Shown in pieces: positions 18,408-55,961 of a DNA stretch of 64,000 nucleotides (its first letter is position 1; the number at the start of each line of letters is the position of its first letter). The DNA is from Dysgonamonadaceae bacterium (GTDB lineage Bacteria; Bacteroidota; Bacteroidia; Bacteroidales; Azobacteroidaceae): assembly GCA_031272075.1 (NCBI GenBank), contig JAISUK010000067.1:1-64000 (forward strand), given 5' to 3'. The notes under the pieces were generated by a model. The model was not told the DNA's origin and searched no databases. It saw nothing but the letters and a program-made list of their open reading frames with translations. Position numbers and translations under genes: made by a program.

Positions 18408-18440
18408 ATGTGTGTTCAAAATTTTAATTACTAACGTATG

Positions 18441-18533
18441 TAACGAGCATGATTTTCAAACATTCAAGTGGATGACTATAAAGACATGCGAGTTCCATAC
18501 GACTTTTTAAAAACAAATTATTGACGTATGAAA
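18441..18533 (+). repeat. Dispersed 93-bp intergenic element, copy A
   Basis: This stretch aligns without gaps to 55869-55961 read on the minus strand, with about 79 of 93 identical positions by hand. It starts TAACGAGCATGATTTTCAAA and ends TTATTGACGTATGAAA. CATACG (18496-18501) can pair with CGTATG (18525-18530), closing a stem of six pairs or more. That 3' arm contains the ATG (18528) of the following gene. A third ACGTATG at 18434-18440 could compete for CATACG. It could be a cis-acting RNA leader or the remnant of a small mobile repeat. Confidence 0.75.
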
Positions 18534-19109
18534 AGGGTTATTTCTATCGTAGCACTATGCTTCTTGCTTTGCATGGCTTCATTGCAAGCCCAGATCCGCT
18601 TCGGGATACGGGCAGGGGTGAATATTGCCAACATTTCCAATATTTCGGAAAGCACGCTCTCCCCGGATAATATCAACGGGTTTCAGGCTGGCGCCCTCTT
18701 GGAATGTTTCATCCTGAACAATCTCGGATTCGATGTGGCCGCCCTTTATTCACAACGGGGCATCAAGATCAACGAGATCCAAATCAACAAACATGTCGGT
18801 TATCTGGACATTCCGGCCAATCTGAAGATGAAACTGGATGTCTTTGAGAGTGTGAAACCCTACGTCGCGGCAGGCCCGTATATCAGTTTCAACCTGGCGT
18901 CGTCGAAGGTATCCGAACAGTGGAAAGCCAAGAGCTTCGGCGCAGGTGTCAATGTCGGTGCAGGCATTGAGCTGATCAATCACTTGCAGGTGGGACTCAA
19001 TTACGGCCTCAGCCTGACGGACGATTACAGCACCATCAAAGACACCGCCGTCAAAGACCTGAAAGCCAAGAGTAGGACCTGGTCGCTGGTCGCTACCTTT
19101 TTGTTCTGA
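18528..19109 (+). CDS. Outer membrane beta-barrel protein
   Basis: This 193-residue protein has a Sec signal (MKRVISIVALCFLLCMASLQ, then AQ) followed by alternating hydrophobic and polar strands typical of the PorT/OMP_b-brl_2 family: IRFGIRAGVNIANI, FQAGALLECFIL, YLDIPANLKMKLD, VKPYVAAGPYISFNL and a C-terminal TWSLVATFLF. The final aromatic residue is expected for barrel insertion by BamA. Its ligand is unknown. The start codon lies inside the 3' end of the 93-bp repeated element, so translation may be controlled by that element. terC starts four bases after its stop, suggesting cotranscription. Confidence 0.85.
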   Translation: MKRVISIVALCFLLCMASLQAQIRFGIRAGVNIANISNISESTLSPDNINGFQAGALLECFILNNLGFDVAALYSQRGIKINEIQINKHVGYLDIPANLKMKLDVFESVKPYVAAGPYISFNLASSKVSEQWKAKSFGAGVNVGAGIELINHLQVGLNYGLSLTDDYSTIKDTAVKDLKAKSRTWSLVATFLF

Positions 19110-47573: not shown

Positions 47574-47987
47574 ATGGAAACAACAAAAGCTGTTTATTTG
47601 GGAAATCTGCGTACGGAAGCCGTACATTTACAATCGGGAGCGAAAATTACTACCGATGCTCCGGTAGACAATCAGGGGAAAGGAGAGGCGTTTTCTCCGA
47701 CGGATCTCTTCGCCGTTTCTTACGGTTGCTGTGCGTTGACGATTATGGGAATCGCCGCACAAACGCATGGGTTTAATATTGACGGCGCGGAAGTGAAAAC
47801 GACAAAAGTCATGGCCTCCAATCCGCGGCACATTGCGGAACTGATTGTTGAGTTTATCGTGCCTGACAATCATTTTACCGAAAAAGAACGTAAAATCATT
47901 GAGAAAGCCTCCATCGATTGTCCGGTTGCAAATACCGTTGCGTCTGTGGTGAAAATTACGAAGACAATCAGTTATAAGAGTTATTGA
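47574..47987 (+). CDS. OsmC family peroxide-reducing protein
   Basis: This 137-residue protein has the two conserved cysteines of the OsmC/Ohr superfamily: one in SYGCCALTIMG near residue 50 and the other in SIDCPVANTV near residue 120. Members reduce organic hydroperoxides or other oxidants using thiols. It seems closer to the YhfA-like OsmC branch than to Ohr. No -7 box is clear in the A/T-rich 68 bases upstream. The stop is three bases before the start of the GH127-like gene. Confidence 0.9.
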   Translation: METTKAVYLGNLRTEAVHLQSGAKITTDAPVDNQGKGEAFSPTDLFAVSYGCCALTIMGIAAQTHGFNIDGAEVKTTKVMASNPRHIAELIVEFIVPDNHFTEKERKIIEKASIDCPVANTVASVVKITKTISYKSY

Positions 47988-47995
47988 CGTATGAA
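47981..47995 (+). repeat. 15-mer TTATTGACGTATGAA at a start codon
   Basis: This exact 15-mer is also the 3' end of both 93-bp elements (18518-18532 and 55884-55870) and lies at the serine hydrolase start (55815-55801). Here its TGA ends the osmC gene and its ATG starts the next gene. The rest of the element is absent. Confidence 0.8.
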
Positions 47996-50111
47996 TTACT
48001 TAAGAATGACGGTATTAATTATCGGGATGATGATTGGTATCAGTGGCTGTATGGATAGATCGGTAAGAAAAATATCCAGGAATCTTCAACGGGAGGGAAT
48101 GGCGGTCGGTTTGAGATGGAGGACCCAAACGGGGGCGGAAGTGGCCTGTGTTTCACGTCCTCTCCCCGGATCGGGCAATAGCCATTATGTCGGAAATCGC
48201 GCCCCGTTGCAGCCTTCGCAGTTTATCAAATTGCCGGTAGGCGCCATCCAGCCGGGGGGGTGGATGAAGGAATACCTCCATCGCCAGCGCACCGGGCTGA
48301 CGGGTCAGCTGATGCACATCAGCAGTTGGCTGGAGAAAAACGACAATGCCTGGCTGAATCCGAAAGGACAAGGATCGTATGGCTGGGAAGAAGTGCCGTA
48401 TTGGTTGAAAGGCTACGGCGATTTGGCTTATTTGTTGAACGATCCGGAGATGATTGCGGAAGCGGAAATCTGGCTCAACGGCGTGCTGGGAAGTCAACGG
48501 CCTGATGGTTATTTCGGTCCATGGATCGAAAAGAACGGTAAACCGGATTTGTGGGGAAACATGATCATGCTTTGGTGTTTGCAGTCGTATTACGAGTTTT
48601 CGCACGATGAGCGCATTATCCCGTTTATGACAGCCTATTTCCGATGGCAGTTGTCGCTTCCCGAAGGCTTGTTTCTGAAAGATTACTGGGAAAATAGCCG
48701 CGGAGGAGATAATATGTACAGCGTCTATTGGCTCTACAATATTACCGGAGAATCGTGGTTGCTGGAACTGGCGGAAAAGATCCACCGGAATACGGCAAAC
48801 TGGCATCAAGATTCACGTTTGCCCAACTGGCACAATGTGAATATTGCACAAGGGTTTCGCGAACCGGCTACGTGGTGGATGCAAAGTAAGGATTCTGCCG
48901 ATTTGCAGGCGACATACAATGCTTTTTGGTTGGTTCGCCGGACGTTCGGGCAGGTTCCGGGCGGGATGTACGGGAGCGATGAAAACTGTCGTCTCGGATG
49001 TATCGATCCTCGACAAGGCGTAGAGACCTGCGGCATGGTGGAACAGATGTCGTCGGATGAAATGCTCCTGCGGTTTACGGGCGATCCTTTCTGGGCGGAT
49101 CATTGCGAAGAAGTGGCGTTCAATACGTATCCCGCCGCTACCATGCCCGACTTCAAGTCGTTGAGGTATATCACCTCGCCCAACATGGTCACTTCCAATG
49201 CCAACAACCACCATCCCGGCATCGACAATCGCGGCGCGTTTCTGATCATGAATCCTTTCAGCAGCCGTTGTTGTCAGCACAATCATACGCAAGGCTGGCC
49301 GTATTACGCGGAACACCTGTGGTTGGCCACCCCGGATAATGGTCTGGCGGCGGTGCTCTTCAGTGAAAGTTCCGTCAAGGCCAAAGTAGCCGATGGCGAG
49401 GAAGTGACGGTGACGGAAACGACCCATTATCCTTTTGAAGAGCAGATCCGCTTCCGGGTAAGTACCGCCACCGACGTGCGTTTCCCGCTTTATATCCGTA
49501 TTCCGGCCTGGTGCAGTAAAGCTAAAGTCACCCTCGACGGAAAAAAGGAGAATGTGACCCTGACGGCAGGAACCTACGTACGCATAGATAAAATATGGAA
49601 AGACGGCGATGAAATCACGGTCGACTTGCCGATGGAGATTGAGGTTCGTCAATGGGAAGTAAATCAGAAAAGCCTGAGTGTCAACTATGGACCGCTGACT
49701 TTCTCTTTGAAGATTGACGAAAACTACAAGGAAGTCAAGAGTGACGAATCGGCGCAAGGCGATTCCAAGTGGCAAGCCGGTGCGGATGCTGCGCAATGGC
49801 CTTCGTGGGAAATTTCTGCCGAAAGCAGCTGGAATTATGGATTGCAGTACGACCCGGATCAACTCAATCGGTCATTTACCGTAATAAAGAAATCCTGGCC
49901 GGACGATAATTTCCCGTTTACTACCGAAAGCGTGCCGGTAGAAATCAAAGCCAAGGGGCGACAGATCCCGTCATGGACAATCGACAAATATGATTTATGC
50001 GCCGTATTGCCGACCTATCCGGTGGTGACTGCATGCCCGACGGAAGAAATCACGTTGATACCGATGGGTGCCGCAAGGTTGCGAATCACAGCGTTTCCGC
50101 CGGTAGAATAA
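47991..50111 (+). CDS. GH127-like (DUF1680) lipoprotein
   Basis: This 706-residue protein has a lipoprotein signal (LIIGMMIGISGC) and an alpha/alpha-barrel like GH127/GH146 beta-L-arabinofuranosidases, which use a zinc-bound cysteine nucleophile. The catalytic glutamate and cysteines appear in GVETCGMVEQ and FSSRCCQHNHTQGWPY. Other family stretches are KLPVGAIQPGGWM, GYGDLAYLL and YIRIPAWCSKA. The substrate is inferred from the family and could be another plant or host sugar. It begins three bases after the osmC stop and carries the TTATTGACGTATGAA start motif. It probably faces the outer membrane or periplasm. Confidence 0.85.
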   Translation: MNYLRMTVLIIGMMIGISGCMDRSVRKISRNLQREGMAVGLRWRTQTGAEVACVSRPLPGSGNSHYVGNRAPLQPSQFIKLPVGAIQPGGWMKEYLHRQRTGLTGQLMHISSWLEKNDNAWLNPKGQGSYGWEEVPYWLKGYGDLAYLLNDPEMIAEAEIWLNGVLGSQRPDGYFGPWIEKNGKPDLWGNMIMLWCLQSYYEFSHDERIIPFMTAYFRWQLSLPEGLFLKDYWENSRGGDNMYSVYWLYNITGESWLLELAEKIHRNTANWHQDSRLPNWHNVNIAQGFREPATWWMQSKDSADLQATYNAFWLVRRTFGQVPGGMYGSDENCRLGCIDPRQGVETCGMVEQMSSDEMLLRFTGDPFWADHCEEVAFNTYPAATMPDFKSLRYITSPNMVTSNANNHHPGIDNRGAFLIMNPFSSRCCQHNHTQGWPYYAEHLWLATPDNGLAAVLFSESSVKAKVADGEEVTVTETTHYPFEEQIRFRVSTATDVRFPLYIRIPAWCSKAKVTLDGKKENVTLTAGTYVRIDKIWKDGDEITVDLPMEIEVRQWEVNQKSLSVNYGPLTFSLKIDENYKEVKSDESAQGDSKWQAGADAAQWPSWEISAESSWNYGLQYDPDQLNRSFTVIKKSWPDDNFPFTTESVPVEIKAKGRQIPSWTIDKYDLCAVLPTYPVVTACPTEEITLIPMGAARLRITAFPPVE

Positions 50112-54293: not shown

Positions 54294-55805
54294 TTATTGG
54301 CGTTTCACTCCTGCAAACGTCCATTCGTTGCCCAAGTTGCCGACACGCGTTTTCAGATGGAGCGAATCCCCTGTAAAATGACATTCGGCATATTCTGTGT
54401 GTGGTGTCTCAGCGTATTTTAAAGCCAACAACACGGTGGCGCTGTCCGAGATGCTGTAACTGCCGAAAACATTAAACGGAGGAAATTCCCTGAAAGCCCA
54501 AACGCTTGGAAGCAGATTCGGAGCAGGACGCTCGGTTTCGCCTGCAATCCATGTGCCGTTGCCGAATTTCAGATTATATTCGCCCCAATTGACAATGCAG
54601 GTGTCATTGTCGAAATTCAACGCAAACGTGCTTGTTTGGCCGCCAAAGTCCGTGATTGTATAAGTGCCTTCGGCAGATGCCGGAATAGTTGTCGTAGCTG
54701 CGAGCGGCGCTATTTTCAGCGAAGCCAGTTTTTGTTTCAGCGTCTCTGCTGCAACCTTGTTTTCCGGCAATGCTTCCGGGTGCATTGCAGGAAGCAAGAT
54801 ATCCCAAACATAATTGATTTCGCGTTGCATGTTGCCGACATTGGCTTGAATCGCGATCACGGCATCCCAATCGGGCATCACGATGATGTACTGTCCGTAT
54901 GCGCCGTCCGCACGGAAAGCATTGTTGCGACAACGCCAAATCTGATAGCAATAACCTTGTGCCCAGTCGTCAATTGACCGCTGTTCGTCGCTAATTTCAG
55001 GCTTCTGAAGTATTTTAGCGGAAGTAGCCTCTGCAATCCACGATGCAGGAAGAATTTGCTTGCCGTTCCATTGGCCTTTCTGTAAGTATAATTGTCCGAG
55101 TTTTGCCATGTCTTCGGTATGGATACGTAATCCCCATCCTCCGGTATTGACGCCTGTGGGCGAGAGTTCCCACTCTGCGCCTTCGATGGCGAGCGGTTCA
55201 AAAAGACGGGGTGTAAGATAATCCAATACGCGCTGTCCGGTAAGTTTTTGAATGATAGCCGAAAGCATATAGGTAGCCATCGAATTGTAACTGAACACCG
55301 TGCCGGGTTCGTATTTGACAGGGGTGGCGAGAAATGCCTGTTCCCAATTATCAACTTTCCGCGATGATTCGTATTCCTGACCGGTTGCCATCGAAAGCAG
55401 ATTCTTGACGGTCATTTGTTCAAGGTAGGGGCAAACGGTGTCGGGAAGCAAGTCAGGGAAAAAGGAGACGACCTTGTCGTCCACAGTCAGCAGGTTTTCC
55501 GCTACTGCAAAGCCGATTGCGGTAGAGGTAAACGTCTTGCTGGTAGAGTAGATTGTCTGTTTCAATTCCGGTTTGAACGGATCCCACCAGCCTTCGGCGA
55601 TTACTTTCCCGTGCCGCAGCAGGATGAAACTGTGAAATTCGTCGCCGCTGCTCTGTTCGAGCGCTTCAACAAATTTGAGGATACCTTCGGAAGAGACACC
55701 TTCCTTTTCGGGGATGCTGCGCGGCAGCGAACCGATTGCTTTGTCTTTGTTACAGGCGCCCAGCAACAGGGATAGAGAAAAAAGAATACAAATAAGATTT
55801 TTCAT
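54294..55805 (-). CDS. Serine hydrolase lipoprotein (class C beta-lactamase family)
   Basis: This 503-residue protein has a lipoprotein signal (CILFSLSLLLGAC) and a beta-lactamase-related domain: the SxxK motif in YSTSKTFTSTAIG and the YxN motif in FSYNSMATYML. The remaining 130 residues form a lipocalin-like beta domain (EGTYTITDFGGQTSTFAL). Members hydrolyse esters, D-amino-acid peptides or peptidoglycan fragments and rarely act as antibiotic resistance enzymes. The start codon lies in the 15-base repeat TTATTGACGTATGAA. Sixty-four bases upstream is the 93-bp element copy B. A TAAATTTG box is at 55843-55836. Confidence 0.87.
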   Translation of the reverse strand: MKNLICILFSLSLLLGACNKDKAIGSLPRSIPEKEGVSSEGILKFVEALEQSSGDEFHSFILLRHGKVIAEGWWDPFKPELKQTIYSTSKTFTSTAIGFAVAENLLTVDDKVVSFFPDLLPDTVCPYLEQMTVKNLLSMATGQEYESSRKVDNWEQAFLATPVKYEPGTVFSYNSMATYMLSAIIQKLTGQRVLDYLTPRLFEPLAIEGAEWELSPTGVNTGGWGLRIHTEDMAKLGQLYLQKGQWNGKQILPASWIAEATSAKILQKPEISDEQRSIDDWAQGYCYQIWRCRNNAFRADGAYGQYIIVMPDWDAVIAIQANVGNMQREINYVWDILLPAMHPEALPENKVAAETLKQKLASLKIAPLAATTTIPASAEGTYTITDFGGQTSTFALNFDNDTCIVNWGEYNLKFGNGTWIAGETERPAPNLLPSVWAFREFPPFNVFGSYSISDSATVLLALKYAETPHTEYAECHFTGDSLHLKTRVGNLGNEWTFAGVKRQ

Positions 55806-55815
55806 ACGTCAATAA
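55801..55815 (-). repeat. 15-mer TTATTGACGTATGAA at the serine hydrolase start
   Basis: An exact copy of the 15-base end of the 93-bp element, read on the minus strand, with the ATG in register as the start codon. The end of copy B lies 68 bases further upstream, and its CATACG could also pair with this CGTATG. Confidence 0.8.
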
Positions 55816-55868: not shown

Positions 55869-55961
55869 TTTCATACGTCAATAAATTGTTTTAAAAAGTT
55901 CGTATGAAACTCGCATGTCATTATTTTCATTGGCTTGGATGTTTGAAAATAATGCTCGTTT
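55869..55961 (-). repeat. Dispersed 93-bp intergenic element, copy B
   Basis: Gapless match on the minus strand to 18441-18533, about 79 of 93 positions. The closing stem is stronger here: TTTCATACG pairs with CGTATGAAA over nine perfect pairs. The ATG in its 3' arm (55874) opens an 18-codon ORF ending before the serine hydrolase start. On the other strand the element overlaps the promoter of the nitroreductase gene. Confidence 0.75.

What the first reader, a model, noticed from the sequence alone, without database searches (positions are those of the whole stretch)
18441..18533. A 93-bp intergenic element, present twice, that folds over a start codon
18441-18533 and 55869-55961 (inverted) align without gaps at about 79 of 93 bases, counted by hand. 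Both precede genes for envelope proteins. Both keep CATACG near position 56 and CGTATG near position 85, which can pair. Copy B extends the stem to nine perfect pairs (TTTCATACG/CGTATGAAA), while copy A has one mismatch in the extension. In copy A the 3' arm contains the start codon of a beta-barrel gene, so the stem would hide it. A third ACGTATG at 18434 in copy A could pair with CATACG instead and free the start codon. This looks like either an RNA switch or thermosensor, or a small mobile repeat that brought a start codon.
Basis: partly seen in the sequence, partly recalled or inferred. Interest (0 to 1): 0.78.

Follow-up and report, generated by a model that had tools for sequence, protein, structure and literature searches.

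The report
Mobile repeat that rebuilds start codons
The repeat is a roughly 90-base jumping DNA hairpin, present more than 100 times in this Bacteroidales genome, that inserts at gene start codons (ATGAA) and carries its own ATGAA at the far end, so the invaded gene keeps a working start.

Summary
In detail: the two copies match at exactly 79 of 93 bases. They belong to a high-copy family: 113-129 copies in this Dysgonomonadaceae MAG, 1-14 in same-genus genomes, mostly none in the family, and bursts in Paludibacter, Prolixibacteraceae and other Bacteroidales MAGs. It is a mobile element. Comparison of two related Paludibacter MAGs gives four empty-versus-filled sites (one exact at base level), and the insert is 5'-ACGAGC...CGTATGAA-3', placed directly after a target TGAA. 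The right end regenerates ATGAA, and in 142 of 171 copies that ATG opens an ORF of at least 60 codons. Invaded genes are functionally unrelated and include aroA and fabD homologues. The third ACGTATG is not conserved, and copy B and other intergenic copies cover no start codon, so a thermosensor or switch is unlikely. I favour a transposase-dependent element that moves like IS200/IS605-derived PATEs or REPs, recognised through its hairpins, with an internal CAT-guide pairing with the cleavage sequences. No transposase was found: Y1_Tnp is absent here and in three other copy-rich genomes. The enzyme is unknown.

The parts
18439..18442 (+). Copy A: target-equivalent tetramer, TGTA (other copies have TGAA), preceded by A; the pre-insertion start codon would be ATG 18438-18440
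   Evidence: position equivalent to the TGAA that is left single in empty sites; alignment A3
18443..18532 (+). Copy A: the inserted element, ACGAGC...CGTATGAA
   Evidence: boundaries from the empty site L068/L356 transferred by alignment
18442..18494 (+). Copy A: hairpin 1, arms AAC 18442-18444 + GCATG 18447-18451 with CATGC 18485-18489 + GTT 18492-18494; tandem GA/GA internal loop; variable apical part
   Evidence: folds and pair counts: helix 1 99%, helix 2 93% of cells paired, few compensatory changes
18496..18530 (+). Copy A: hairpin 2, CATACG 18496-18501 with CGTATG 18525-18530, AT-rich loop; the 3' arm holds start codon 18528-18530
   Evidence: covariation: AU/CG/GC/UA types, 14 double changes; 555/621 pairs against 475 +/- 5 in shuffles
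18528..19109 (+). outer-membrane beta-barrel gene whose start codon is the right end of copy A
   Evidence: ORF, PF13568/PF13505
55960..55963 (-). Copy B: target TGAA, preceded by A
   Evidence: sequence; rule from empty sites
55870..55959 (-). Copy B: the inserted element, intergenic between two divergent genes; its own ATG opens only 18 codons
55872..55906 (-). Copy B: hairpin 2, CATACG 55906-55901 with CGTATG 55877-55872
   Evidence: sequence; RNA fold
55800..55815 (-). solo tail TTATTGACGTATGAAA without hairpin, holding the real start codon of the 54294-55805 gene
   Evidence: solo tails listed
47981..47996 (+). solo tail at the start of a GH127 beta-L-arabinofuranosidase gene (47991-50111)

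Best explanation
The repeat is a non-autonomous mobile DNA element of about 90 bp. Shown: it inserts directly 3' of the tetramer TGAA, almost always within ATGAA. Its own right end reads CGTATGAA, so insertion at a start codon leaves ATG-AA in place, and the gene now starts from the element's right end with the element as the new sequence just upstream. It forms two adjacent hairpins. Hairpin 1 is AAC-ga-GCATG/CATGC-ga-GTT with a variable top. Hairpin 2 is CATnnG/CnnATG, whose pairing is held by compensatory changes. Inferred: a transposase acting in trans recognises the folded single strand. The internal CAT-guide at the foot of hairpin 1 pairs with the right-end CnnATGAA, and more weakly with the target ATGAA, to set both cut sites, much as guide sequences do in IS200/IS605 elements. 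The element is selfish. Its spread is tolerated because start codons survive the insertion. The stem over the start codon is a by-product of that design, possibly with a mild effect on translation.
For: There are 113-129 copies here against 1-14 in same-genus genomes and 0-2 in the rest of the family. Other Bacteroidales genomes have 2-28 copies, with near-identical copies in CTSoil_027. Empty versus filled sites between clean1867 and clean407: L068/L356 is base-exact at an intergenic GTGAA; L065/L354 and L087/L352 are at start codons; L061/L317 is supported over a short upstream stretch. In L164 the element sits at the start codon of a Y1 transposase gene whose relatives lack it. The right ATG opens an ORF of at least 60 codons in 142/171 copies; under a stricter start test it is 132/166 against 24/252 for all ATGAA in the window. 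Bases upstream of the left ATGAA resemble native start contexts. The right base A is kept when the left base is not A. Hairpin 2 covaries. Invaded genes are unrelated: EPSP synthase, acyl transferase, P5C reductase, hexokinase, dCMP deaminase, TenA, SusD, MFS.
Against: No transposase was found. Y1_Tnp (PF01797) is absent from this genome (93% complete) and from G045, G050 and G054, all rich in copies. No long copy carrying a gene was seen among the left ends examined in six genomes. Hairpin 1 shows conservation but little covariation. No extended guide-target match upstream of ATGAA was seen (small control). The replication-strand test that ssDNA insertion predicts was uninformative, because GC skew followed gene direction. 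The excess of start-codon sites (83% against about 21-45% expected from non-coding TGAA/ATGAA sites) is not explained by target sequence alone.
Confidence: 0.75

Rival explanations
1. It is a cis-acting RNA element: hairpin 2 hides the start codon and opens with temperature or a ligand, giving a regulon of more than 100 genes.
For: Hairpin 2 contains the start codon and covaries. About 83% of copies precede ORFs in sense orientation. Gene-start copies keep the 6-bp stem slightly more often (121/142) than other copies (19/29, p = 0.018), although the latter include truncated copies.
Against: Downstream genes share no function. Orthologues lack the element. Copies such as B and L068 are not at start codons. 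The competing third arm is not conserved. The predicted RNA fold of copy A does not form hairpin 2 and is no more stable than shuffles (z = -1.0). No Rfam family matches.
Confidence: 0.08
2. It is a REP-like element mobilised by a RAYT/IS200-type Y1 transposase that is present elsewhere in the clade or has been lost here.
For: Hairpins near both ends, no terminal inverted repeats, short length and a fixed tetramer at the junctions fit IS200/IS605 derivatives as described in PMC6006769 and PMC3119063. Y1_Tnp genes occur in 8 of 11 element-bearing genomes tested.
Against: Y1_Tnp is absent from four copy-rich genomes. The Y1 gene next to a copy (L164) belongs to a RAYT family flanked by its own, different REP (AACCTTATTACCTTATT) and looks like a target, not a partner. 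No canonical GTAG/GGAG foot is present.
Confidence: 0.3
3. It moves through an RNA-guided or RNA-templated route (a bridge-RNA-like recombinase or a reverse transcriptase) in which the hairpin RNA pairs with target and donor ends.
For: One guide segment pairs with the right junction and partly with the target. Start codons are over-represented beyond target frequency. Tail-only copies exist in this genome.
Against: No candidate enzyme was sought or found. The element is far shorter than known bridge RNAs (from memory). Tail-only copies have ragged left ends, which simple deletion of the hairpin also explains.
Confidence: 0.12

Closest known systems
PATEs (palindrome-associated transposable elements) of Haloquadratum, derived from IS605-type elements (PMC3119063)
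   Same: Too short to encode a transposase; no terminal inverted repeats; palindromes near the ends; no target duplication beyond a conserved terminal oligonucleotide that acts as targeting sequence; high copy; internal deletions; nested insertions into the palindromes (L346, L369).
   Different: No related transposon found in the host; target is ATGAA at start codons and the right end restores it; one internal guide appears to serve both ends.
REP/REPIN with RAYT (TnpA_REP) (PMC6006769, PMC8266576)
   Same: High-copy hairpins with an internal mismatch, thought to be mobilised in trans.
   Different: No GTAG/GGAG foot, no linked RAYT, no REPIN-type inverted pairs seen; located at gene starts rather than between genes.
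IS200/IS605 (IS608) guide-directed transposition (PMC6006769, PMC5934647)
   Same: Internal guide pairs with a tetramer at the junctions; insertion 3' of a fixed tetramer.
   Different: Guide lies at the 3' foot of hairpin 1 instead of the 5' foot; guide-right end pairing is a 6-bp covarying stem; no transposase gene.
Rickettsia palindromic elements (PMC10969869)
   Same: Small palindromic mobile repeats that insert into genes without destroying them.
   Different: RPEs insert in frame inside coding sequences; this one inserts at the start codon and is not translated into the protein.
Correia and other MITEs (PMC10969869)
   Same: Small high-copy elements just upstream of genes.
   Different: Correia has terminal inverted repeats and carries promoters; this element has neither terminal inverted repeats nor a tested promoter.
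TAACTGA direct repeats of Beggiatoaceae (PMC4679880)
   Same: Repeats immediately upstream of many start codons with no functional theme.
   Different: Tandem heptamers, no hairpin, no demonstrated insertion.

Membership tests
PATE / non-autonomous IS200-IS605-type element | short, no transposase gene, dispersed in many copies | tested here: met
   84-104 bp in most copies, >100 copies
PATE / non-autonomous IS200-IS605-type element | no terminal inverted repeats; palindromes near the termini | tested here: met
   two abutting hairpins fill the element
PATE / non-autonomous IS200-IS605-type element | insertion at a fixed oligonucleotide without further target duplication | tested here: met
   single TGAA in the empty site, TGAA at both junctions when filled
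PATE / non-autonomous IS200-IS605-type element | palindromes shared with an IS605-type element or Y1 transposase in the clade | tested here: not met
   Y1_Tnp absent from own genome, G045, G050, G054; Y1 loci elsewhere not flanked by the element except L164, which has its own REP. IS605-type elements lacking a recognisable TnpA were not searched
PATE / non-autonomous IS200-IS605-type element | single-strand (lagging-template) transposition | tested here: inconclusive
   GC skew in sampled G054 contigs followed gene direction, not replication
REP (RAYT-associated) | GTAG/GGAG tetramer 5' to the hairpin foot | tested here: not met
   foot sequence is TGAAACGAG
REP (RAYT-associated) | linked RAYT gene | tested here: not met
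RNA thermosensor / riboswitch | conserved regulatory structure in the leader of functionally related genes | tested here: not met
   unrelated genes; copies outside leaders; no Rfam match
RNA thermosensor / riboswitch | expression changes with temperature or ligand | not testable with these tools
   needs reporters
MITE (DDE transposon derivative) | terminal inverted repeats and target site duplication | tested here: not met
   no terminal inverted repeats; the only repeat at the junctions is the fixed TGAA

The most novel reading that the evidence does not exclude
A new class of small mobile element that homes to start codons: a self-guided hairpin whose internal guide pairs with both its right end and the target ATGAA, moved by an enzyme that is not a recognisable Y1 transposase, with preference for start codons beyond sequence (for example through R-loops or mRNA).
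Probability: 0.3. Interest if true: 0.82.

Novelty: new variant of a known kind. Interest (0 to 1): 0.62.

Why it matters
Small mobile repeats usually survive by landing between genes. This one lands on the start codon itself and replaces it, so it can colonise gene starts, including those of housekeeping genes, and gives the invaded genes a shared, structured sequence just upstream. That makes two questions testable: how a bacterium without Shine-Dalgarno initiation tolerates more than 100 imposed leaders, and which enzyme moves a roughly 90-base guided hairpin. It also warns against reading repeated hairpins over start codons as regulators when they may be selfish DNA.

Tried and rejected
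Coding reading: A and B stay in register over 30 codons, and B reads as an open 28-codon leader, but A and most copies have in-frame stops (codon 5 is TGA in the commonest form), so I dropped it. Autonomous partner in L164 (element plus Y1 gene, with a nearby copy of the flanks that looked like an empty site): rejected after 22 relatives of that Y1 gene showed their own REP and no element. Integron attC: considered because the hairpin has AAC/GTT arms and a variable top; rejected because the junction is TGAA and not G/TT, and the R-box consensus does not fit (inspection). Carriage by phages or plasmids: no match in viral contigs (exact pattern), phages or plasmids (blastn with copy A). Larger versions with a gene inside: none among the left ends examined in six genomes. 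Replication-strand bias: uninformative. Extended target match upstream of ATGAA: not seen. First alignment A2 held two mis-specified rows and was discarded for A3. Orthologues of the copy-A gene were found in sister genomes, but I did not align their upstream regions, and the gene is only about 50% identical.

Full report
1. The observation. The stem CATACG/CGTATG and the position of the ATG at 18528 in the 3' arm are as described. The gene downstream of copy A has an outer-membrane beta-barrel domain. Copy B is intergenic, between a beta-lactamase-fold gene, apparently a lipoprotein, and a nitroreductase. Its own ATG opens only 18 codons, and the neighbouring gene starts at a second TTATTGACGTATGAAA about 70 bp further on.

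2. Not two copies but a family. A 19-base part of the element has 129 hits in the genome (3.02 Mb, at most 3 mismatches; reversed control 1). At a stricter setting it has 113. The three same-genus genomes have 4, 1 and 14, and of the other 44 family members only 7 have any, with one or two each. Exact matches occur in Paludibacter, Dysgonomonadaceae, Prolixibacteraceae and other Bacteroidales MAGs, and in one MAG labelled Chitinophaga, and whole-genome counts there range from 1 to 28. One of them, CTSoil_027, holds near-identical copies. Viral contigs, phages and plasmids hold none at the sensitivities used. This patchy, bursty distribution is that of mobile DNA. The family of the window's genome is inferred as Dysgonomonadaceae because a locus of a same-family genome (L103) carries the same sequence as record L067 of that family.

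3. Anatomy. Across about 200 copies the element reads (A)TGAA | ACGAGCATG - variable 30-40 nt - CATGCGAGTTCCATACGA - AT-rich 20-25 nt - CnnATGAA. Most copies are 84-104 nt counted from the left TGAA. It folds into two adjacent hairpins: hairpin 1, AAC-ga-GCATG/CATGC-ga-GTT with a variable top, and hairpin 2, CATACG/CGTATG. On a 40-row alignment of divergent copies, hairpin 2 has 96% of cells paired and 14 double changes of types AU, CG, GC and UA. With the right end found by a rule that ignores the guide, 555 of 621 variable pairs are Watson-Crick against 475 +/- 5 in shuffles. Six perfect versions occur: ACG/CGT, ATG/CAT, CCG/CGG, GTG/CAC, TCG/CGA and CTG/CAG. Hairpin 1 is conserved but varies too little to test by covariation.

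4. Proof of insertion. Two related Paludibacter MAGs (clean1867 with the copy, clean407 without) give empty sites. L068/L356...CGGCCTTG|TGAAAAATGC... is empty, and ...CGGCATTG|TGAA|ACGAGC...CGTATGAA|AATTGC... is filled. In L065/L354 and L087/L352 the same happens at the start codon of an orthologous gene, though upstream sequence has drifted. L061/L317 agrees over a short upstream stretch. Two insertions are shared by both species (L291/L349; L089/L092), and in one case different subfamilies occupy the same start codon. When the base before the left TGAA is not A, the right end still reads ATGAA, so the right-hand A belongs to the element.

5. Start codons. In 142 of 171 copies the right-hand ATG opens an ORF of at least 60 codons. 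With a stricter start test the figure is 132 of 166, against 24 of 252 for all ATGAA in the window. Non-coding TGAA or ATGAA sites in the window outnumber or equal ATGAA gene starts (54 and 17 against 14), so random insertion into harmless sites predicts about 21-45% at starts, not 83%. The excess is unexplained. Invaded genes include homologues of EPSP synthase, malonyl transferase, pyrroline-5-carboxylate reductase, hexokinase, dCMP deaminase, TenA, SusD and an MFS carrier, which is no regulon.

6. What moves it. Inference only. The absence of terminal inverted repeats, the hairpins, the fixed tetramer at both junctions and the internal sequence that pairs with the junctions resemble IS200/IS605 derivatives and PATEs (PMC3119063, PMC6006769; target choice by base pairing in IS608, PMC5934647). 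But Y1_Tnp is absent from this genome and from three other copy-rich ones. The one Y1 gene next to a copy belongs to a RAYT family with its own REP, so it is a victim rather than a partner. No gene-bearing version was seen among the left ends examined. I therefore describe it as working like a PATE and do not claim membership.

7. The RNA-switch reading. Against it are the unrelated genes, intergenic copies, element-free orthologues, the unconserved third arm (exact in 18 of 103 own copies and 2 of 101 others), the unremarkable RNA fold of copy A and no Rfam match. The one point in favour is that gene-start copies keep hairpin 2 slightly more often than the others (85% against 66%, p = 0.018), and that is confounded by truncated copies among the latter.

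8. Tail-only copies. This genome also has TTATTGACGTATGAA at gene starts without the hairpin. There are 26 at ORFs of at least 60 codons in the fetched stretches, some of which were fetched for that reason. None were found in the stretches of other genomes, a smaller sample. They are best read as elements that lost their hairpin, but this was not shown.

Noticed in passing
window 47981-47996 (+), 55800-55815 (-); L033, L193, L201, L216, L236, L238, L240, L241: Solo TTATTGACGTATGAA tails at gene starts without the hairpin, frequent in this genome; probably remnants of elements that lost the hairpin, with ragged left ends.
   Followed up: partly
L346 (around 9480 on the minus strand) and L369 (around 1484): Two copies in Bacteroidales bin.18 are interrupted at the same place in the hairpin by another repeat (GAAGTTTTAAGTAGCGAGA...).
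   Followed up: no
L242-L264 and L164: A Bacteroidales RAYT family (MKIEYNNL...) flanked by its own REP-like repeat AACCTTATTACCTTATT / AATAAGGTAATAAGGTT.
   Followed up: partly
L061 second copy versus L317 around 2391-2540: Orthologous gene starts in two species occupied by different subfamilies of the element, so either independent insertion at one site or replacement.
   Followed up: partly
L013, L028, L043, L081 and own-genome C14:28580/28671, C21:20685/20776: Tandem copies with a period of about 90 bp sharing the TATGAAA between units, as expected if a new copy inserts at the ATGAA of an old one.
   Followed up: partly
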